A stretch of 64,000 bases of DNA from Haladaptatus sp. R4 (GTDB lineage: Archaea; Halobacteriota; Halobacteria; Halobacteriales; Haladaptataceae), in contig NZ_LWHG01000011.1 in the NCBI RefSeq assembly GCF_001625445.1, positions 62,001 through 126,000 on the forward strand, in the 5' to 3' direction. Positions 46,348 to 56,057 of the stretch are shown here, piece by piece; position 1 is the first letter of the stretch; each line of letters begins with the position of its first letter. Below the pieces are notes generated by a model that searched no databases, was not told the origin of the DNA, and worked only from the letters and a program-made list of their open reading frames with translations. The position numbers were made by a program, and so were the translations under genes.

Positions 46348-47124
46348 GTGAAACGAACTGCCGCATTCGTCGGTGCGACCGGTGGAGCCGGGACCACACG
46401 CCTCTGTCTCGAAACGGCCGCCATCCTCTCTCACGTCGGACACGACGTGGTGATTCTAGATGCCGCCTTCGGCACGCAAGGGTTGTCCCGCCACGTTCCC
46501 CATCGTATCGACACCGACATCACTGCACTGCTGATAGACGACCACGGAACGGACGAGGAGTTCTCCGACGCGCTCATCGATCATCCGGTCGAAACCACGG
46601 GCCAACTCTCACTGTGTCCGGCGTATGCACCCTTCGAACGCATCGCTCGCGCCAAAACCGTAGACGCCGCTCAAGCGTTGGAAACACTCGTCGAACGGGC
46701 CAGCGACGACTTCGACCACGTCATCATCGATACCCCACCCGTCGCCGCGAATCAAGCTGTTGCGGCCGTCAACGCGGCTGACACCGTCGCCGTCGTCGCT
46801 CCGGCGTCCCGACGCGGAGCGGACGCCGTTCAGGGAGTTCGCGGCCGTCTCGCCGACCTCGGAACGGACGCGGACACAGTTCTCGCCAATCGCGCCGAAT
46901 CCCCGGACGAGGACCATCTGGGGGATGTTCCGACGATTCCGACGAGCGACGCGACCGCAGTCGAATCGATTCCAGCGAGCGCGCCCGAACTCGACACCTC
47001 GTTTTCACCTGCAATCGTCGCCGCCACTGAAGTCGTGTTCGACACGTCGCTCGATGTCGAATTTCCGGAGGAGGGATTGCTCGACATCGACCCGGATGAC
47101 TACCTTCCGGAGTCACTCCGGTAA
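46348..47124 (+). CDS. MinD/ParA-like protein lacking the P-loop lysine
   Basis: A 258-residue protein with the deviant-Walker fold: N-terminal strand, 'GHDVVILDAAFGTQGLSRH' (switch I), 'FDHVIIDTPPVAANQAVAAVNAAD' (Walker B/switch II). The P-loop at residues 10-17 reads 'ATGGAGTTRL' where MinD has KGGxGKTT: both the signature Lys and the P-loop Lys are Thr. ATP binding may be weak or lost. A second, intact MinD gene lies 1.6 kb further. GTG start. Role unknown. Confidence 0.78.
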   Translation: MKRTAAFVGATGGAGTTRLCLETAAILSHVGHDVVILDAAFGTQGLSRHVPHRIDTDITALLIDDHGTDEEFSDALIDHPVETTGQLSLCPAYAPFERIARAKTVDAAQALETLVERASDDFDHVIIDTPPVAANQAVAAVNAADTVAVVAPASRRGADAVQGVRGRLADLGTDADTVLANRAESPDEDHLGDVPTIPTSDATAVESIPASAPELDTSFSPAIVAATEVVFDTSLDVEFPEEGLLDIDPDDYLPESLR

Positions 47125-47157: not shown

Positions 47158-47673
47158 TCACAGCAAGTCGCCGACGTCGCTCATCGTCTCGGCTAACACG
47201 TCCCTCTTTTCCACACTGGCGTGTCCGTCGAACGCCAACGCGCCTTCGACCGTTTCCGCCGCTCCGTCCAACGGCTCGTGCGTTTCGATGAACGTCGCCA
47301 GTGCGAACTCGGTTTCGCTCGCCCCCGAGAGCGTGAACGCTTCCGACCGGGAGAGGTTCGCTGAAAGCCAATCCCGAACGAGTTCGTGACCCATCGACGA
47401 GAGTGGGGAGACCCCGTTCACGCCGAGCAGGTGAAGCGTCTTCGCCGCCGTCATGGGGGCGACGCCAGCACGACGAGCGCTTTCACCGACAGATGCTCCT
47501 GCAGCGTGTGCTTCCACGATGCATACCGCCATTTCCGTCTCGCACGGCAACGCATCACTGAACGCCGCCAGCCGATCGTGGAGGTCCCGCTCCGTGTCAT
47601 CCACGGTTGCGATGCCGTGATTCTTCTGCTTGGCTGTGACCTCCAGCCCGGCGGCGATATCCGACAGCGCCAT
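47158..47673 (-). CDS. haloarchaeal protein with helix-turn-helix-like segment (DUF7858-like)
   Basis: A 171-residue protein starting 'MALSDIAAGLEVTAKQKNHG'. 'ALPCETEMAVCIVEAHAAGASVGESARRAGVAPMTAAKTLHLLGV' looks like a helix-turn-helix of the resolvase/sigma kind. From memory it belongs to a haloarchaeal DUF (DUF7858 or near), unchecked. ATG 47673 preferred over 47715. It diverges from tfb and is convergent with the MinD-like gene. Confidence 0.68.
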   Translation of the reverse strand: MALSDIAAGLEVTAKQKNHGIATVDDTERDLHDRLAAFSDALPCETEMAVCIVEAHAAGASVGESARRAGVAPMTAAKTLHLLGVNGVSPLSSMGHELVRDWLSANLSRSEAFTLSGASETEFALATFIETHEPLDGAAETVEGALAFDGHASVEKRDVLAETMSDVGDLL

Positions 47674-47805
47674 GTGTACTCCTCGTCCCTTCCTTGACTT
47701 TAATGTTTGTGACAAGTATCAAATTTGGTAATTGTGTCCCGCAACGTACCGGTAACCGGTACGTTCCTCCCGTCCAAATCGGGTTCGTTTCCCGAATTCG
47801 ACGTT

Positions 47806-47815
47806 CGTTTAAATA
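47806..47815 (+). promoter_or_regulatory. TATA box of tfb
   Basis: 'cgtttaaata' (TTTAAATA at 47808-47815) is about 28 bases before ATG 47842. It points to a leaderless transcript and supports that start. Confidence 0.6.
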
Positions 47816-47841
47816 CCATCTCGGACGAAGTTTCACTTGTG

Positions 47842-48720
47842 ATGAGTACGACACAACACCTCACTGAAGCGTGTCCCGAATGTCATAGCCGAGTCCGCAC
47901 GCGCGGTTCGGAAACCGTCTGCACCGAATGCGGCCTCGTCGTCGCCGAGGACAACCTCGACCGGGGTCCGGAGTGGCGGTCGTTCGACGATGACGACACC
48001 GACCGTAAGCGCACTGGCGCGCCGCTCACGCGCTCCCGCCACGACCGGGGACTGACGACCGAGATCGGGTACAAAAACAGCAGCGTCCGGCTGACGGGCC
48101 GCAAACGACGCCGCGTGATGCGCATGCGTCGTCAGCACAACCGCGCCAGAATCTCCTCCAAGGCCGAGCGAAATCGCGTCTACGGCTTCACCGAAATCCG
48201 TCGGCTCGTCGGTGCGCTCCAACTGTCCGTGAACATCCGTGACCGTGCTTGCGTGCTGTTCGAATCCGCACAAGGCGAAGACCTTCTTCGTGGGCGCTCG
48301 ATAGAGGGCTTCGCCTCTGCGGCGGTGTACGCGACGTGCCGAACGTCGGCCGTCTCCCGTACGCTGGACGAAATCGTCGAGCGTGCCCGCGCCGACCGCT
48401 CGGAACTGACCGCGGCCTACGACGCACTGAACCGAGAACTCGGTCTTCCCGTCGGTCCGATCGATCCGCGCGAGTACCTGCCGCGATTCGCCAGTCGACT
48501 CAACCTCTCGATGGTGAGCGAACGACGCGCCGAAACGCTCGTCACGAAGGCGGAACGGGAGAACCTCATTAGCGGTCGCAATCCCAGCGGCGTGGCCGCC
48601 GCGTGTCTCTACGCAGCGGCTCGCGACTGTGACGAACGTGTCACCCAACGTGCCGCCGCAGAAGTCGCCGACGTAACGCCCGTCACGCTTCGCTCGACGT
48701 ATCACGACCTCCGGGAGTAA
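47842..48720 (+). CDS. tfb: transcription initiation factor IIB
   Basis: A 292-residue TFB. Zinc ribbon 'CPECHSRVRTRGSETVCTECG', B-reader/linker 'DRGPEWRSFDDDDTDRKRTGAPLTRSRHDRGLTTEIG', then two cyclin-like repeats ('LQLSVNIRDRACVLFESAQGEDLLRGRSIEGFASAAVYATCR' and 'LNLSMVSERRAETLVTKAERENLISGRNPSGVAAACLYAAAR'). It recruits RNA polymerase to TBP-bound promoters. Haloarchaea carry several TFBs; this one is on the short side. Its end overlaps the minus-strand minD gene by 19 bases. Confidence 0.94.
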   Translation: MSTTQHLTEACPECHSRVRTRGSETVCTECGLVVAEDNLDRGPEWRSFDDDDTDRKRTGAPLTRSRHDRGLTTEIGYKNSSVRLTGRKRRRVMRMRRQHNRARISSKAERNRVYGFTEIRRLVGALQLSVNIRDRACVLFESAQGEDLLRGRSIEGFASAAVYATCRTSAVSRTLDEIVERARADRSELTAAYDALNRELGLPVGPIDPREYLPRFASRLNLSMVSERRAETLVTKAERENLISGRNPSGVAAACLYAAARDCDERVTQRAAAEVADVTPVTLRSTYHDLRE

Positions 48721-49364
48721 ATCGCCCGTCCGAGTTCCGCGAACCGTTCTCTTGTATCGCTTTCCGGCGCAGCGGTTGCTACGGGGCGTCCGTGCCGCTG
48801 TGCGTCCGCAATCACACTCGATTCCGGCAGCGTCGTCACTGGCGCGCCGAGCGTCCGTTCGACGATTTCGGTCGGTGGATCGTCCCGCACTCGATTCAGT
48901 ACGACGCCACACAGTCCCGCACCGAGTTCCCGCGCGAGCACCTTCGTTCGAACCGCGTCCGCCAACGCGAACCGTCGCGGAACCGTCACGAGGACACAGC
49001 TATCCGCCGCAACCAACGGAAGTCCCGCGTCGGCCGACATCCCTGCCGGACAGTCGATTATCACGTGGTCGTATTCGTCGGCGACCTGCTCTACCGCGCC
49101 GACGACCCCCGTCACGTCACATGCACGTGCTCCCGCCAACGTACGGCCACACGGGAGCATCGACACACCACCGACGGTCGAAACCGCCTCCAGTGGTTCC
49201 GCACGTCCGGCGAGTACATCGTGTAAATCCGGGCCGTGGCACGTCGGCAAGTCCGCCATTGCGAGGTCGGCATCGACCACAACACCGCCGAGTTCCGCTC
49301 CGAGATTCAACGAGACGGTCGATTTTCCGACGCCACCCTTGCCTCCCGTTACTGCCAAGATCAT
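48702..49364 (-). CDS. minD: MinD/ParA family ATPase
   Basis: A 220-residue deviant-Walker ATPase with intact 'GGKGGVGKSTVSLNLG' (P-loop), 'VVVDADLAMADLP', 'YDHVIIDCPAGMS'. No clear C-terminal amphipathic membrane helix. It overlaps the upstream DUF7857-like gene by 4 bases and is the last of a five-gene minus-strand run starting at 51871. It may act with those partners in positioning or division, but this is inference. Confidence 0.88.
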   Translation of the reverse strand: MILAVTGGKGGVGKSTVSLNLGAELGGVVVDADLAMADLPTCHGPDLHDVLAGRAEPLEAVSTVGGVSMLPCGRTLAGARACDVTGVVGAVEQVADEYDHVIIDCPAGMSADAGLPLVAADSCVLVTVPRRFALADAVRTKVLARELGAGLCGVVLNRVRDDPPTEIVERTLGAPVTTLPESSVIADAQRHGRPVATAAPESDTRERFAELGRAIYSRRS

Positions 49365-50038
49365 ATCTTCCTCCCGACGGTGTGCGTCTCCCGTGCTGCT
49401 GCAATCCGTTCCCGTACCGTATCGACCCGTTTTGCAACCGAATCGAGCGTTCGTCCATCGGCTTCGAGTTTCCGTCTCAACTCCTGCTCACGAGTCCGAT
49501 CGTTCACATCCTTCGCCCCCATTTTTCCCTCGTTGGCTTCGTATCGCTCCGTTCGCGTCTCGATACCCGACAGCCACGCCTCGACCTCGTCGGGGAGTTT
49601 CGTCGGGTGTGGCATCGGTACCACGTCCGCAGGCGGTCGAGCATCACCCAGTGCTCGGACGACACCCGTCGCTGTCGGTTCGATTTCTAGTTCCTCATCG
49701 ATCATTCCTCGCTCCGTGTCGCTCGCCGACGGTTCCGTCCTCGGCGCTCGTTCGGTCCACACGATTTCCGCAGGCGGTGACTCTTGATTTGGGCCGGTCG
49801 CTACCGCGTAGCCAAGGGCGCGCCGTTCGTCCGCCGCGACGACACCTTCGAACCCGCCTTCGTCCCACCCCGCTTCCGGAACGCCGTTCCGTCGCGGCGG
49901 TCGTATCTCACCATCGAGCCGGTTCCCGATACGAATTCTCACGGGAACCGTCGTCGTGTTTTCGACCACCAGTTCGACCAGCGTGACGGTTTCGACCCTC
50001 CCGTTCTCCTCGTTTACCGTCCAGTGAAGCGTCACCAT
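49361..50038 (-). CDS. haloarchaeal protein of unknown function (DUF7857-like)
   Basis: A 225-residue protein beginning 'MVTLHWTVNEENGRVETVTL'. The first 90 residues look like a beta-sandwich ('VTLVELVVENTTTVPVRIRIGNRL', 'RRALGYAVAT'); the middle is acidic and disordered; the end is helical and coiled-coil-like ('EQELRRKLEADGRTLDSVAKRVDTV'). From memory a haloarchaeal DUF (about DUF7857), unchecked. Between minD (4-base overlap) and the DUF7856-like gene (26-base gap), so it belongs to that operon. Confidence 0.7.
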   Translation of the reverse strand: MVTLHWTVNEENGRVETVTLVELVVENTTTVPVRIRIGNRLDGEIRPPRRNGVPEAGWDEGGFEGVVAADERRALGYAVATGPNQESPPAEIVWTERAPRTEPSASDTERGMIDEELEIEPTATGVVRALGDARPPADVVPMPHPTKLPDEVEAWLSGIETRTERYEANEGKMGAKDVNDRTREQELRRKLEADGRTLDSVAKRVDTVRERIAAARETHTVGRKI

Positions 50039-50064
50039 GCCCCGGGTTGGTCCCGTCTTCGTTC

Positions 50065-50895
50065 TTAAACCTGTAGTACGGGTGCATCGAGACACTCAGC
50101 GGCGCGTTTTGACGTGTCGAAGCGGTTACACGCCAGTACGATCGGTGCTCGAACTCGCGCCACGCGAGCGATTGCAAGCGCGGCAGTCACTGGATCTCCT
50201 TCGAACGTTCCCGGATCGGTCGTCCGCCCTCGTCCCGGAACTGCTTTGATCGCTGAATCGAACCGCTCGTGAGTCCGTCGAACCAAGTGACGACGGGCAC
50301 TCCGTTCGAGGTTCTCCTTCCGGTCGTGGAGACGCAATCGTTGTTCCCGAGCATTCCTCGCGGCTTGTTGGCGTTTTCGGGCCGCTTCGAGGGTCTGCTC
50401 GGCGGCAATACGTTTCGTCTCCAGTTCGGCTAACTCCCGCGTCATCCTCTGGAGGTCGGATTCAGCGTCGTTGGAATCTCCCTCGACCTCCCGAAGGGCC
50501 TGTACGCGTCCACGAAGCGCCGCGACCTGTTCTCGCAACCTGGTTTCCGATCCGCTCGCGTCCGCGACCCGTCTCCGTTCCGCGCGGAGCGAGACATCGC
50601 CGATATCGAGCGAGCACATTCGTGCTTCGATGTGTGCTATCTCTTCGTCCTGCGGTGCGTTCATACCGATCGAACGGGCGGCGGCGGCCAATGCTGGTCG
50701 AGGACGGATCGACATCCCTGACTCGATACAACCGATGTACCGGTGTATCGGACCCGGGTCTCCACAGACAATACTGATTTCCCCCGTTTCGGTGCCCGAC
50801 CGAACTGCCGCTACGATTTCCTCCGTCGCTACTGACTTTCCCGAGAGGTCGACTGCCCTTCCCCGAAACGTGCCGTTCTCCGTTTCGACGTTCAT
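50065..50895 (-). CDS. coiled-coil haloarchaeal protein (DUF7856-like)
   Basis: A 276-residue protein. Residues 1-90 form an alpha/beta part ('GEISIVCGDPGPIHRYIGCIESGMSIRPRPALAAAARSIG'). Residues about 115-200 form a long Arg/Glu-rich coiled coil. The last 55 residues ('GDPVTAALAIARVARVRAPIVLACNRF') return to alpha/beta. 'CGDPGP' and 'ACNRF' recall nucleotide-handling loops but are not diagnostic. It overlaps the next gene by 4 bases. Unknown function; DUF number from memory. Confidence 0.7.
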   Translation of the reverse strand: MNVETENGTFRGRAVDLSGKSVATEEIVAAVRSGTETGEISIVCGDPGPIHRYIGCIESGMSIRPRPALAAAARSIGMNAPQDEEIAHIEARMCSLDIGDVSLRAERRRVADASGSETRLREQVAALRGRVQALREVEGDSNDAESDLQRMTRELAELETKRIAAEQTLEAARKRQQAARNAREQRLRLHDRKENLERSARRHLVRRTHERFDSAIKAVPGRGRTTDPGTFEGDPVTAALAIARVARVRAPIVLACNRFDTSKRAAECLDAPVLQV

Positions 50896-51239
50896 AATTC
50901 CGCGTTTCGCATCGCATCCGGCGACGGATGCTCGGTTCCCATGGAGAACTTCTCGTACGGCGTACTCGATTTGTCGCGCTTTTCGTACGCGCTGGCTGCC
51001 GAACGGATTGTTTCCGGCACATCACGAAACTCGTTCAGCGGTTCGGTGCGTTCCAGTTGTACATCGGCCCCGTGCTTCTCGTACAACCGAAGCGCGAGGA
51101 ATGCACCCAACTCCGTCGATTCCAGGAGCGCTGCCCGCCCAAACCGCCTGACAACGCACGTTTCATGCGTCGTACAGACGTTCCGGAGCGTCTGCCGAGC
51201 GGCACGGGAGTACGTAATTATCAGCAACACACCATTCAT
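50892..51239 (-). CDS. small haloarchaeal protein (DUF7855-like)
   Basis: A 115-residue protein, 'MNGVLLIITYSRAARQTLRN' followed by 'TTHETCVVRRFGRAALLESTELGAFLALRLYEKHG'. Alpha/beta, no membrane segment. ATG 51239 chosen because the upstream extension to 51515 runs antisense through the end of the neighbour. Coupled by a 4-base overlap to the coiled-coil gene and 26 bases after the DUF7504-like gene. Confidence 0.7.
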   Translation of the reverse strand: MNGVLLIITYSRAARQTLRNVCTTHETCVVRRFGRAALLESTELGAFLALRLYEKHGADVQLERTEPLNEFRDVPETIRSAASAYEKRDKSSTPYEKFSMGTEHPSPDAMRNAEL

Positions 51240-51265
51240 TGGTGGATGATATGTTTTAAAATTAA

Positions 51266-51871
51266 CTACCGCGTTCTCACGTTCCACTCGTTGCCATCGA
51301 ATTCGGCAACGGCGTCGAACAGTGTTTTCAGCGTATTGACGGTTTGTGAGTCGTGGGCGTCCGGGTCGAGATGGAAGTGTGCGGTCACGTCCGCGGTAGT
51401 GAATCGACCGGTGAGGACGTGTAGAAACTTGTAGACGGTTTGAACGTCGGAGTACTGGAGCAGTGCCGTCAACGAGTGAAAACAGGCTACGGTCTTGTTG
51501 CCGTCTCCGTGCCATTGTTGGAGCACTTCGCTGATTTTGATACCAAGCCCGGTCAAATCACCGGGATTCGAGAGCGTGTCGATGACTGCGTCGGTCGGCG
51601 TTTCTCCCATCGATGCCGACGTTGCAACCGATCGTACCGTCTCCCCGACACTGAGGAATCGGAGGTTCGCGGGACGACCACCCGCATGAGCGAGCCAATC
51701 CTGTAGACATGCATCCGGTGAGCGTGTAAAAGTAACCCAGAGGACGTCTTCCTGTTCCGGTGGTGTCTTCGTGAGCATGTCGATACATGCTTCGTCGGTT
51801 TCCGAACGCATGGAGGGAGCGAGAACGAGAATACTGGCTTCGTCATCGAGCGCTGCCGAAACCCTACTCAT
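51266..51871 (-). CDS. DUF7504-like RecA-fold protein without P-loop
   Basis: A 201-residue protein: 'ASILVLAPSMRSETDEACIDML', 'EDVLWVTFTRSPDACLQDWL', 'LGIKISEVLQQWHGDGNKTVACFHSLTALLQYSDVQTVYKFLHVLTGRF', 'HFHLDPDAHDSQTVNTLKTLFDAVAEF'. The strand-helix order resembles RecA/KaiC-fold ATPases with a Walker B-like 'VACFHSLTALLQ', but there is no GKT loop. From memory DUF7504. ATG 51871 chosen. First gene of the operon running to minD; promoter expected in 51872-52085. Confidence 0.72.
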   Translation of the reverse strand: MSRVSAALDDEASILVLAPSMRSETDEACIDMLTKTPPEQEDVLWVTFTRSPDACLQDWLAHAGGRPANLRFLSVGETVRSVATSASMGETPTDAVIDTLSNPGDLTGLGIKISEVLQQWHGDGNKTVACFHSLTALLQYSDVQTVYKFLHVLTGRFTTADVTAHFHLDPDAHDSQTVNTLKTLFDAVAEFDGNEWNVRTR

Positions 51872-52085
51872 CTCGGGTTGTCCTCGACGACGTTGTGCGT
51901 GCTCGCTACGTTGTCCATCCCGTACCATCGCTCGTGTATCATAGAGCCACCTGCATTATTATGGATTTAATAAACTTCTCGACACCTGTCGACCATGTCT
52001 CATCTGATACACCCTCGCACACGCGCAGTTGTTACTGTTCTACTATATCCAGAGCATGTTTATCTAGTTTTCTATCTCTGCTATA

Positions 52086-52373
52086 TTATCGTTTATTGAT
52101 ACCCTTGATATCGAATTCTACCGTCTCGTCGTCGAGCAGTTCGGCTACCCGCTCGGTTGCTTCCGTTTTCGATTCCGCGACGACGGTGATTCCCGTTGCC
52201 CGTTCGTCGCCACACGCTCGATACACGGACAGATCACGTTCCGCTTCGAATTCGGTAGCGTACGTTTGCAAGACCGTCAGTACTCGTCGCTGTGTCTCAC
52301 GTAACTCGTCCTCTCCGGATTCGAAATCCGAAAGTGCATTCTCTATATTTCTGAGTGCGGAGATTCGATCCAT
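52086..52373 (-). CDS. small haloarchaeal protein (DUF7854-like) after mcm
   Basis: A 95-residue acidic protein, 'MDRISALRNIENALSDFESG' onward, helical then with a beta hairpin ('VYRACGDERATGITVVAESKTEATERVAELL'). One base separates its ATG from the mcm stop, so it is co-transcribed with mcm. The DUF number is from memory. Function unknown; tight linkage suggests a role near the replicative helicase. Confidence 0.72.
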   Translation of the reverse strand: MDRISALRNIENALSDFESGEDELRETQRRVLTVLQTYATEFEAERDLSVYRACGDERATGITVVAESKTEATERVAELLDDETVEFDIKGINKR

Positions 52374-52374
52374 C

Positions 52375-55300
52375 TTACGTCGTTCGAAGATGATTCGTCG
52401 ATGGCTCGTAGACCTCCCCTTTCTGTTTCAGCTTGTCGATCTCGTGTTCCGCCTTCGACGGGTCCATGTTGATCTCTTCCGCCCGATCGAGGACGACATC
52501 GACCGGTGCGCCATCGTCGTACTCCTCCTCGATACTCGCAATGAGCTGTTTGATGTTCTTGATTCGATCCCGTTGCGTTTTCGAGGTTCCCGTTTCCACC
52601 ACGTCGGCGTCGAACTGCCCGGTTTCGGGGTCCACGCCGATATCTTGCATACAGGACCGAGCGATTTCGATGACGCGATCGGCGTCCTCCTGTTCGACCG
52701 TATCCGAAAGTCGAACGCGTGCGCTCGCCTCGGCGAGGCGGACGAGTGCCTCCAGTTTTCGGGCCGTGACCGGAATCGGCGCGTCCTCGTCCACCCCTTT
52801 CGACCGTAAATCCACGTAGAAGTCTTGAATCGCCTGCTGGGCCTCCGTACTCATCGTCGGATAGACGTTCGATTTCGAATAGGCGATGTACTTCCGCAGG
52901 AGTTCGGCGTCGATGGCCGGAGCCACCTCCTCGGTCTGGCTGTTGACCTGCTCTTCCGTGATGTTCGGCGCGTTGATTTCGGTTCGCTGTGTGTTCAACT
53001 CGCCCGCGAAGTTGGTCTGAAGGATGTGTTCCGCGAGTTGTGAGTCGTGATCCGGGTCCGGTTTGTCCGTCACCGTAAAAATCAGGTCGAACCGTGAGAT
53101 GAGCGCCGGTTCGAGGTTGATCTGTTCGGCGATGGATTCGTACTGGTCGAACCGCCCGTACTTCGGGTTCGCTGCGCCCAGAAGCGAACAACGGGATTTT
53201 AACGTCGCGTTGATCCCGGCTTTGCTCACGCTGATCTTCTGCTGTTCCAGTCCCTCGTGCATCGCGGAACGTCCTCCGGACGCATCTTGTCCAACTCGTC
53301 CACCGCCGCGATACCCTTGTCCGCGAGGACGAGCGCACCGGCTTCGAGCGTCCACTGCTGGCCGTCCCCGAAGTCGTCGCGGACCGCCGCCGCCGTCAGC
53401 CCTGCCGAGGACGAACCCTTCCCGGAGGTGTAGACGGAACGCGGCGCAATATGTTGTATATATGACAACATCTGGGAGTTATGTGAGACGATGTTGTTCG
53501 TGAGATAGTTGTGCGTCCCTTCGATTTCGAGGTCGTACACCCACTCGTACTCAGGTGTGAGTTCTTCGACGGATTCGATTTTGTCCCACGAGATATCGCT
53601 CTCGGCTAGCCGACGTAGCGCATTCACATCCCCCGTGACTTCCAGTGCTTCGTCGATTCGATCGAGAACGACTTCCTTCGCATCAGCAACGTGCCCGCCA
53701 TCCGGAGCGACCGCGTTTCGTTCATAGTAACTGATGGCCGTCTGCGTAACAGACATCTCGTCGGACAATTCCTTCTGCGAGATATCTAACTCGTCACGGA
53801 CGGCGCTGATTTCGTCCCAGTTCCCATTTTCGATCCGCCTTCTGACATCTGCAAGCCAATCGCACCTGGTTTCGAACGCCGTAACTACTTTTTCGAGACT
53901 GGTTCGACTGGGATTTCTATCGCCCCGTTCGTAGTGTTGATACGTCGTCCGCGGCACACCACAGTCAAACTGCGATAGTGCGAGTGACTCCCGTACTGTT
54001 TGAAGTTCGTCAGACGTAACTGGAATTACATCGCGGTTCGTATTACCGATCGTCCCGTCAAACTCCATTGCTGTGAGCGGTTTTCTATCGGTAACGAATC
54101 CGATGTTCTCGACGTACGTTTCGAACTGTTTTCCACCGATCCGAAGCCGATAGCTCCCGTTTTTGCGTTCTTGGAGCGATGTCTCGATTCCCTCCGCGAG
54201 TAACAGACTTCGAACGTTTTCCAGTAGTATCTCGCTTGTCGATGCGACTGTAATTTCCCTCTGTGTCACCGAAACGTGGCACTCCGAATCGATGTACGCT
54301 TTCAGGAACGCCTGTTTGACTTCCGAACTTGCTCGCATGAGCGCGTCCGGAACTCGTTGGTTCGAGGATGACTCTAGAATCGATGGTTCGAAGCTCCGGA
54401 GGAAACTCACGAACTCGCCGGAGGAACACATCACCTCTTTCGCCGACTTTCCGTCGTGTGACTCTCGGATCGTGTAATTCAGCTTTAGCCGGTCGAGTGC
54501 ATCGCACGCATCCTCTAGTATCTCGGCGTCGTTGTTCGTGATCGACACGAATCCAGTGTTGTTCTCTCGAAGCTCGACGTACCCTTCTGCGATGATATAG
54601 CCGATCAGCCGTGCGAGAGATGGAGTCCATTTCTCCGGAGGATCGAGCCGAATTGCGTTATGCGATTTGGACCGGCGGTACTCGACATCGAGTTCATCGT
54701 TGGATTCGGTTGGTATCTTTCTCGGAGTTGCGATGAAATCTCCATCTTTCAATTGCTCCGCCCGCTCCGCTATGAACTCCCCATTGGATTGTACGAACAA
54801 CGGATGTGAAGGAGTTATTTCGAGTTCCGTTCCGCTTTCGGTGCGAACTCGGTACATCGTTTCCGGCGCTTCTCGTTTCCACACCTTCGTTGCGTGCTGT
54901 TCCCCAACCGTCCCATCGTCTTGCATCGATGGCACCGTGATATCAACCTCATCGTAAACGCCGTCGTCTATCGGTTTCGGGTCACTCAGATTCTCTTCTA
55001 CGAGTTCTCGAATCCGGACTTCACGACCGTCTGCAAGCGTGACGTTCGTGTCCCCTTTAACACATTTACCCGTACCAGGGTCACCGATTAAAAGCATGTG
55101 CAGGTCGCCGCGAATTCGCGACCCGTCGGGGAGGTGCTTGGTCACACCGGAGAACAACTGGAGGATCATCGCCAACTTCTCCTGCTCGTAGCCGTAGATG
55201 GCCGGGGCGATGGATTCGACCATCTGCTCGTAGATGTCACCCTCGTTCGAGAGTTCGATGATTTCCTGTTTGTCCTCGTCGGTGATGTCCATGTCCTCGA

Positions 55301-56057
55301 ACTCCTCGTCCTCGATTTCGACCGAGACACCGTCCATGTAGACGTCGAAGACGGCGGACTTCTCCTGGCCGTTCCCTTGCTGTTCGAGGTGGAGTATTCC
55401 CGTCACGATGACGTGGTCTCCGGGGGAAACCTGTCCCGTGATGTCGTCCTCGATGTGGATGTCGATGCTCTGTGGAGTTTCACCGCCGCGAAGCCCTTCC
55501 GGACTCTCTTGGACGCGAATCTTCTGCGAGTCGATGAACTCGGACTGGTCGAAGTTGATGCGAAACGGTCCTTGCCGTTCACAGCCCTGACATTCGTGCG
55601 GTTCTTGAAAGTCTCCACCCGCCTGCGGGATGTGCGTTAGCGTTCCACAGCGTTGACATTCGAACGCTGCTTCCTGAATCTTCGGTCGCACGCCGGTCGC
55701 CTTGCGGACGATTCCTTGTACGCTCACCATCGTGTTGACGTGCCGGGCACGGATCGCGCGGATATCCGTGTGTTCCGGCAGTCCACGAAGGCGGACGTGC
55801 GCTTGCCCGAGACTCACGTCTACGGGAAGGTCGTACAGACGGAGCGCTTCCTCGGCGTACTCCTGTAACTGCTGTGGTTGGGCGAGATAGTCGTCGGCGA
55901 TGTCCGCATCGTATCGGTAGAGGTCATCCCAATCGACGTGCAACGAACGCTTTTCGTTGGGATACTGCTGGGCCAGATCCCCGATCTGGTCGCTGTAGTA
56001 TCGCCGATAGAACTGCTCGAACCGATCTATCAGTTCCGTATTTTCCGCGCGAGCCAT
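52375..56057 (-). CDS. mcm: replicative helicase MCM, with intein and an apparent frameshift
   Basis: First frame (56057-53226): N-terminal MCM domain with zinc site 'CQRCGTL...CQGCE', then Walker A 'GDPGTGK' at residues 325-331, interrupted by an intein, then 'SQMLSYIQHIAPRSVYTSGKGSSSAGL' and Walker B 'AVDELDKMRPED'. Second frame (from about 53270) resumes with 'RSAMHEGLEQQKISVSKAG' and the Arg finger 'SRFDLIF', ending with the winged helix at 52375. One base is missing near 53270 (the family reads ED-RSAMHE). Corrected total is 1227 residues, 698 after splicing. Loss of the gene should be lethal, so a sequencing error is the simplest explanation. Confidence 0.92.
53478..55064 (-). mobile_element. 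529-residue intein in MCM Walker A, with LAGLIDADG endonuclease and HTH modules
   Basis: Begins at Cys332 ('CVKGDTNVTLADGREV', block A) and ends 'NNIVSHN' before extein Ser, so splicing residues are present; block B is 'ITPSHPLF', block F 'YDLEIEGTHNYLTNN'. The endonuclease has 'LIGYIIAEGYVE' and 'FLKAYIDSECHV' as its two LAGLIDADG helices, each with an acidic residue. Between it and block F lie two XRE-like helix-turn-helix units ('TTYQHYERGDRNPS', 'VTQTAISYYERNAVAPDG'). The reading frame is intact. Insertion after the Walker A Lys matches a known MCM intein site. Confidence 0.92.

What the first reader, a model, noticed from the sequence alone, without database searches (positions are those of the whole stretch)
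48702..52373. mcm-linked operon of haloarchaeal unknowns ending in MinD
A DUF7504-like RecA-fold protein without P-loop, a small alpha/beta protein, a coiled-coil protein, a beta-sandwich-plus-coil protein and MinD are coupled by 4-base overlaps or 26-base gaps, directly downstream of mcm and its own small partner. Such tight, apparently lineage-wide clustering suggests one uncharacterised complex, perhaps connecting the helicase or chromosome to MinD positioning.
Basis: inference. Interest (0 to 1): 0.6.

Follow-up and report, generated by a model that had tools for sequence, protein, structure and literature searches.

The report
MinD1 operon with its obligate partner
Salt-loving archaea carry, between the replicative helicase gene and a transcription-factor gene, a loss-prone block of unstudied genes whose constant core is a positioning-type ATPase (MinD1) coupled to one partner protein (DUF7857), which makes that partner the natural place to start finding out what MinD1 does.

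Summary
The genes are real and spaced as described. Pfam names them DUF7854, DUF7504, DUF7855, DUF7856, DUF7857 and MinD (MinD1, HVO_0225, in Haloferax volcanii). The reading "one lineage-wide mcm-linked complex" is only partly right. In 194 Halobacteria genomes the block splits into modules: mcm–DUF7854, DUF7855–DUF7856, and DUF7857–MinD1; DUF7504 is optional. DUF7857 and MinD1 are practically inseparable: 143 of 149 DUF7857 domains have MinD1 directly downstream, with an exact 4-base overlap in 61 of 64 loci read. They are lost together, moved away from mcm together and transferred together. DUF7856 persists without MinD1 in 8 genomes, and MinD1 without DUF7855 in 30. In 12 of 20 mcm loci examined without the block, tfb lies within 200 bases of mcm. 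AlphaFold gives DUF7857 an Ig-like sandwich plus helical hairpin and DUF7855 a ferredoxin-like fold; neither has a clear relative. DUF7855 and DUF7856 are unusually basic. Best model: MinD1 is a ParA/MinD-type switch, DUF7857 its dedicated adaptor, DUF7855–DUF7856 a nucleic-acid-associated module reached through DUF7857. Pairing is well supported; the rest is inference. Nothing ties it to mcm function, and the published quadruple minD deletion shows no growth or division defect.

The parts
52375..56057 (-). mcm replicative helicase with an in-frame intein-like insert; frame broken by one base near 53270
   Evidence: ORFs 53226-56057 and 52375-53355; sequence; single mcm C-terminal match in this genome
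52086..52373 (-). DUF7854, 95 aa, acidic, 1 base after the mcm stop
   Evidence: Pfam 5e-35; start within 0-6 bases of the mcm stop in most loci
51266..51871 (-). DUF7504, KaiC/RecA-like family without Walker A; optional member
   Evidence: Pfam 9e-41; 18 of 81 loci; no Walker A in 18 of 18
50892..51239 (-). DUF7855, 115 aa, ferredoxin-like fold, near-neutral pI
   Evidence: Pfam 3e-56; AlphaFold pLDDT 96; pI
50065..50895 (-). DUF7856, 276 aa, alpha/beta-like ends around a basic coiled coil; starts in a 4-base overlap
   Evidence: Pfam 1e-88; composition; ends read by eye, not modelled
49361..50038 (-). DUF7857, Ig-like sandwich (2-97), disordered linker, helical hairpin (150-221); MinD1 partner
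   Evidence: Pfam 9e-38; AlphaFold pLDDT 88
48702..49364 (-). MinD1, ParA/MinD-family ATPase, starts in a 4-base overlap with DUF7857
   Evidence: TIGR01969 2e-39, below its cut-off; tree; Walker motif
47725..48720 (+). transcription factor B (TFB), convergent, frequent right-hand border of the block
   Evidence: Pfam TFIIB; found near mcm in 14 of 20 loci without the block

Best explanation
The heart of the cluster is a two-gene module, DUF7857-MinD1. MinD1 is a ParA/MinD-type ATPase switch and DUF7857 its dedicated adaptor or regulator (obligate pairing shown; physical contact inferred). DUF7855-DUF7856 is a second, separable module whose near-neutral to basic composition and (for DUF7855) ferredoxin-like fold suggest it acts on nucleic acid or a nucleoprotein (inferred). 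DUF7857 is proposed to bridge the two: its Ig-like part serves MinD1, its acidic helical hairpin pairs with the basic coiled coil of DUF7856 (inferred). The product would be ATP-driven placement or loading of a DNA-associated cargo (inferred). The mcm-DUF7854 unit is a neighbour, not a proven part.
For: Pairing: 143 of 149 DUF7857 domains have MinD1 directly downstream on the same strand, 143 of 145 MinD1 matches have DUF7857 directly upstream; of 194 genomes 141 have both, 5 DUF7857 only, 1 MinD1 only, 47 neither, and the one 'MinD1 only' genome has a diverged DUF7857 in place (L067). Exact 4-base overlap in 61 of 64 loci read, against 25 of 47 for DUF7855/DUF7856 and 2 of 41 for DUF7856/DUF7857. 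In nine genera some species lack the whole set while others have the pair. The pair is lost as a unit in G018, G054 and G183. One clade of 22 pairs (MinD1 support 100/99) includes second copies in three genomes (G161, G058, G141) that also keep the operon copy; the DUF7857 tree groups the two of these it held (L101, L102) the same way. Walker A intact in 61 of 64 MinD1. DUF7855 and DUF7856 share one phylogenetic profile: 119 genomes both, 4 DUF7855 only. Composition: DUF7855 median pI 6.4, DUF7856 5.7 with coil 8.5, near TFB 8.0, while DUF7857 hairpin 4.6, MinD1 5.0, MCM 4.6. Hairpin-bearing (long) DUF7857 goes with DUF7856: 101 of 104 against 12 of 39 for the short form (Fisher 1e-16). In one genus (g20) DUF7857 keeps its hairpin beside DUF7856 although MinD1 is gone, and G036 has DUF7856 and DUF7857 in one open frame.
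Against: No physical interaction was tested. The hairpin/DUF7856 association is phylogenetically confounded (most short forms are one clade), and 5 of 69 loci have a short DUF7857 next to DUF7856. The most conserved loop of DUF7857 (WPPRR...GW) is kept in g20, which has no MinD1, so it cannot be a MinD1-only surface. Conserved adjacency can mislead: MinD2 and HVO_0596 are a conserved pair with an AlphaFold 3 interface, but deletion of hvo_0596 had no discernible phenotype and the authors see no indication of direct interaction (PMC11588486, passages). Deleting all four minD genes in H. volcanii gave no division or growth role and no motility effect beyond minD2/minD4 (PMC11588486 and PMC11621097, passages). 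Near-neutral pI is weak evidence for nucleic-acid binding.
Confidence: 0.5

Rival explanations
1. Independent modules sharing a locus. DUF7857-MinD1, DUF7855-DUF7856 and mcm-DUF7854 are separate functions that share a promoter or regulation only.
For: Each module occurs without the others; G142 carries mcm-DUF7854, DUF7855-DUF7856 and DUF7857-MinD1 at three places.
Against: 104 of 194 genomes keep DUF7856-DUF7857-MinD1 contiguous and DUF7855/MinD1 presence is associated (Fisher 3e-13, not corrected for phylogeny).
Confidence: 0.3
2. One reading: one complex attached to the replicative helicase or chromosome, coupling MCM to MinD positioning.
For: DUF7854 starts within a few bases of the mcm stop in most loci; the block lies between mcm and tfb in most carriers read.
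Against: mcm is in 194 of 194 genomes but the block is missing from many; 19 of the 22 stand-alone-clade pairs show no mcm in the stretch read; DUF7856 occurs without MinD1.
Confidence: 0.08
3. Regulatory rather than spatial: MinD1 acts as a FleN-like anti-activator or sensor, DUF7857 as its target adaptor, possibly through the neighbouring TFB.
For: FleN is among the closest solved structures to MinD1 after archaeal MinDs; tfb is a frequent right neighbour.
Against: tfb stays near mcm when the pair moves or is lost; no regulator domain found in DUF7857.
Confidence: 0.12
4. Motility role as for MinD2 and MinD4.
For: Family precedent (PMC11588486, PMC11621097, passages).
Against: 23 of 37 genomes without the archaellum family PF04659 keep MinD1, against 119 of 157 with it (p = 0.10); quadruple minD deletion equals minD2/minD4 deletion for swimming.
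Confidence: 0.05

Closest known systems
Archaeal MinD (A. fulgidus MinD-1, PDB 1hyq; 1g3q and 1ion)
   Same: ParA/MinD fold with deviant Walker A; best solved match to the MinD1 profile, 4e-42
   Different: MinD1 forms its own clade, scores 135 bits against the TIGR01969 cut-off 201.75, has a constant GPDLHDVLAGR...CGRSLAGARA signature and an obligate upstream partner
H. volcanii MinD2-HVO_0596
   Same: Haloarchaeal minD with a conserved adjacent gene, likely in the same operon (PMC11588486, passages)
   Different: There the partner is downstream of minD2 and its deletion is silent; DUF7857 is upstream. I did not compare the two partner families
Bacterial MinD-MinE (recalled)
   Same: A MinD-family ATPase with a companion gene beside it
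   Different: DUF7857 has no match to a MinE family in Pfam; its model is an Ig-like sandwich plus hairpin
ParA-ParB, PomXYZ and McdAB positioning systems (recalled)
   Same: ATPase plus dedicated adaptor plus coiled-coil and DNA-associated parts
   Different: No ParB-type match in Pfam for any of the proteins; kinship with PomX, PomY and McdB not tested
KaiC-like DUF7125/DUF7504/DUF7090/DUF835 families
   Same: DUF7504 in the operon; a MinD-DUF7125 fusion lies next to the stand-alone pair in many loci
   Different: The operon DUF7504 lacks a P-loop

Membership tests
ParA/MinD ATPase superfamily | deviant Walker A KGGxGK[ST] | tested here: met
   61 of 64 MinD1; Pfam ParA, AAA_31 and CbiA over cut-off
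Archaeal cell-division MinD (TIGR01969) | score over the curated cut-off 201.75 bits | tested here: not met
   135.2 bits; the best MinD-like of this genome scores 201.1
MinCDE system | MinE-type partner beside minD | tested here: not met
   The adjacent conserved gene is DUF7857, with no MinE match in Pfam
MinCDE system | C-terminal membrane-targeting amphipathic helix on MinD | tested here: inconclusive
   C-terminal tails vary between loci, read by eye only
ParABS partition | ParB-type partner and parS sites | tested here: inconclusive
   No ParB match among operon proteins; parS sites not searched
DUF7504 | Pfam gathering score | tested here: met
   140.8 bits against 27
KaiC/RecA ATPase | Walker A P-loop in DUF7504 | tested here: not met
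   0 of 18
H. volcanii MinD1 (HVO_0225) | orthology by synteny with mcm HVO_0220 | tested here: inconclusive
   The H. volcanii control genome matches DUF7854-DUF7857; HVO_0220 is mcm and HVO_0225 minD1 in papers; its locus was not read

The most novel reading that the evidence does not exclude
DUF7855-DUF7856-DUF7857-MinD1 is a haloarchaeal nucleoid- or nucleoprotein-based positioning system: MinD1 is the ATPase, DUF7857 an Ig-fold adaptor unlike MinE or ParB, and DUF7855-DUF7856 the DNA-associated cargo module; an archaeal counterpart of ParABS/PomXYZ that evolved separate partners and is dispensable and horizontally transferable.
Probability: 0.22. Interest if true: 0.75.

Novelty: new variant of a known kind. 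Interest (0 to 1): 0.5.

Why it matters
For H. volcanii MinD1 no function has been described and no clear MinE-like partner is known for the MinD paralogues (PMC11621097, passages). DUF7857 is a concrete, genetically accessible candidate: one gene, directly upstream and overlapping, lost and moved together with minD1. It also suggests why minD1 deletions may have looked silent: the right assay may need conditions or cargo tied to DUF7855-DUF7856.

Tried and rejected
The idea that the conserved WPPRR...GW loop of DUF7857 is the MinD1-binding site: the loop is kept in genus g20, where MinD1 is gone, so not supported. Motility link: MinD1 presence is not significantly associated with the archaellum family. 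Defence system: PADLOC gives only coiled-coil noise for DUF7856. Plasmid-borne module: no match for a short-form DUF7857 or for MinD1 in the plasmid collection. DUF7857 beyond Halobacteria: 59 of 392 phylum-wide genomes match, 58 of them of the window's own order; the one other is a coil-only hit (7e-4), and one of the 58 (G067) is also coil-only. Solved relatives of DUF7855, DUF7856 or DUF7857 by sequence: none convincing. Fold comparison: Foldseek best E 0.02 and 0.009; VIA-align best Z 7.3 for DUF7855 (UreE, NikR, PII-like and Cas2-like ferredoxin folds, near-tied) and 8.2 for DUF7857 (assorted Ig-like sandwiches), not above the usual background. TATA-like words in the DUF7854-to-next-gene gap: 12 of 42 loci, uninformative. 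In one search loose clustering joined shadow ORFs, and joined DUF7856 with DUF7857 (coiled coils); those clusters were used only to look at neighbours.
Full report
WHAT IS THERE. On the minus strand the window reads mcm, DUF7854, DUF7504, DUF7855, DUF7856, DUF7857, MinD, then a convergent tfb. The spacing is exactly as reported: 26-base gaps before DUF7855 and DUF7857, 4-base overlaps at DUF7855/DUF7856 and DUF7857/MinD. DUF7854 begins one base after the mcm stop; DUF7504 follows after 157-214 bases depending on its start. In H. volcanii minD1 is HVO_0225 (PMC11588486 and PMC11621097, passages) and mcm is HVO_0220 (PMC10643990, passage; search listing); H. volcanii was the only one of 14 control genomes to match DUF7854, DUF7855, DUF7856 and DUF7857. 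I did not read its locus. A search for six DUF names (7504, 7854, 7855, 7856, 7857, 7125) found no paper. A search for HVO_0220 to HVO_0225 listed 8 papers, with hits only for HVO_0220 and HVO_0225.

HOW WIDELY. In 194 class-wide genomes DUF7855 is in 123, DUF7856 in 119, DUF7854 in 119 (one by a weak match), DUF7857 in 146, MinD1 orthologues in 142 and mcm in 194. The MinD1 list is the 145 best-scoring places; weaker ones there are other MinD paralogues. DUF7856-DUF7857-MinD1 are contiguous in 104 genomes. Thirty-eight genomes have none of DUF7854-7857 and MinD1. DUF7504 sits in only 18 of the 81 loci scanned (that sample was chosen for diversity and for odd cases, not at random). In a phylum-wide sample of 392 genomes DUF7857 matched 59: 58 in the window's own order and one coil-only hit elsewhere.

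THE PAIR. DUF7857 and MinD1 stay together: 143 of 149 DUF7857 domains have MinD1 directly downstream and 143 of 145 MinD1 matches have DUF7857 directly upstream. The two MinD1 exceptions are a pair on two different contigs (G147) and a diverged DUF7857 found with a local profile (G129, L067). The six DUF7857 exceptions are G147, four genomes of one genus (g20) without MinD1, and a remnant (G192). The exact 4-base overlap is present in 61 of 64 loci, and 142 of 143 domain distances are multiples of three, as that overlap requires. In nine genera some species lack everything while others keep the pair. In G018, G054 and G183 both genes are gone and DUF7856 abuts tfb; in g20 MinD1 alone is gone, and in G049 and G099 DUF7857 abuts tfb. 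I found no case of MinD1 kept with DUF7857 lost.

MOVES. MinD1 is one clade apart from the other MinD-like proteins of this genome (100/99). Within it 22 pairs form a clade (100/99); three of these (G137, G087, G057) still sit right after mcm and form the sister group of the other 19, which have left it. Second copies in G161, G058 and G141, which also keep the operon copy, nest in that clade for MinD1. The DUF7857 tree (94 columns, poorly resolved) shows the same split, and the two second copies it held (G141, G161) fall on the same side. The simplest reading is transfer of the pair as a unit. Of 20 mcm loci chosen from genomes without a pair at mcm, none has any block gene in the stretch; 14 have tfb in the stretch, 12 of them within 200 bases. 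In G142 the three modules lie at three places; in G136, G013, G065 and G097 the pair is separate from DUF7855-DUF7856.

MODULES AND BRIDGE. DUF7855 and DUF7856 have nearly one profile (119 both, 4 DUF7855 only). DUF7856 occurs without MinD1 in 8 genomes and MinD1 without DUF7855 in 30. Long DUF7857, with the helical hairpin, lies in DUF7856-bearing genomes in 101 of 104 cases, short DUF7857 in 12 of 39. In g20 the hairpin remains beside DUF7856 without MinD1, and in G036 DUF7856 and DUF7857 share one frame. Against this, most short forms are one clade, and 5 of 69 DUF7857 loci have a short form next to DUF7856.

STRUCTURE AND COMPOSITION. DUF7857 models as a six-strand Ig-like sandwich (2-97), a low-confidence linker and a helical hairpin (150-221); DUF7855 as beta-alpha-beta-beta-alpha-beta plus C-terminal helices. 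Fold searches give no specific relative. DUF7855 and DUF7856 are less acidic than MCM, DUF7854, DUF7504, DUF7857 or MinD1, and the DUF7856 coil is basic, in the range of TFB. In a haloarchaeon, where proteins are mostly acidic (recalled), that hints at nucleic-acid work, but it is only a hint.

MECHANISM. The most likely reading is a ParA/MinD switch with a dedicated adaptor; this rests on the pairing evidence and the intact ATPase motif (61 of 64). That DUF7857 connects to DUF7856, and that DUF7855-DUF7856 touches nucleic acid, are inferences. A causal tie to MCM is not supported. The published quadruple minD deletion has no growth or division role (PMC11588486, passage), and its swimming equals that of the minD2/minD4 double deletion (PMC11621097, passage), so any role is conditional or subtle. 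The MinD2-HVO_0596 pair, conserved and with a predicted interface but silent on deletion of the partner, is a warning.

VERDICT. The useful result is a candidate partner for MinD1.

Noticed in passing
window 53226-53355: The mcm reading frame is broken by one base near 53270 in this assembly; only one mcm C-terminal match exists in the genome, so either a sequencing error or a real lesion in an otherwise universal gene.
   Followed up: partly
window 46348-47124: A second ParA/MinD-like gene near the operon has a P-loop without lysine (GATGGAGTTR); in 22 of 29 relatives beside the operon the motif was found and lacks lysine. A conserved MinD-like pseudo-ATPase?
   Followed up: partly
L090 4585-5988, L099 1696-3000, L096 1585-3144: Next to the stand-alone DUF7857-MinD1 pair lies a MinD domain fused to a KaiC-like DUF7125 domain; 12 such MinD domains form one clade, sister to a MinD-like gene beside pyrB in the window's genome.
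   Followed up: partly
L120 4094-12418: In G086 a gene for a 2406-residue surface-type protein sits inside the block, flanked by a fragment of the DUF7855 start and an intact DUF7855, as if inserted with a duplication.
   Followed up: no
L075 4206-5579: DUF7856 and DUF7857 are read in one open frame in G036 but are separate genes in other species of its genus; a natural fusion or a frame error.
   Followed up: no
window 47158-47715: DUF7858, a further family with a consecutive Pfam number, lies beyond tfb on the minus strand; a match was found in 35 of 81 loci.
   Followed up: no
L032 1489-2792: Another MinD-like gene of this genome overlaps a downstream 177-aa ORF by four bases, an arrangement like MinD2-HVO_0596.
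   Followed up: no
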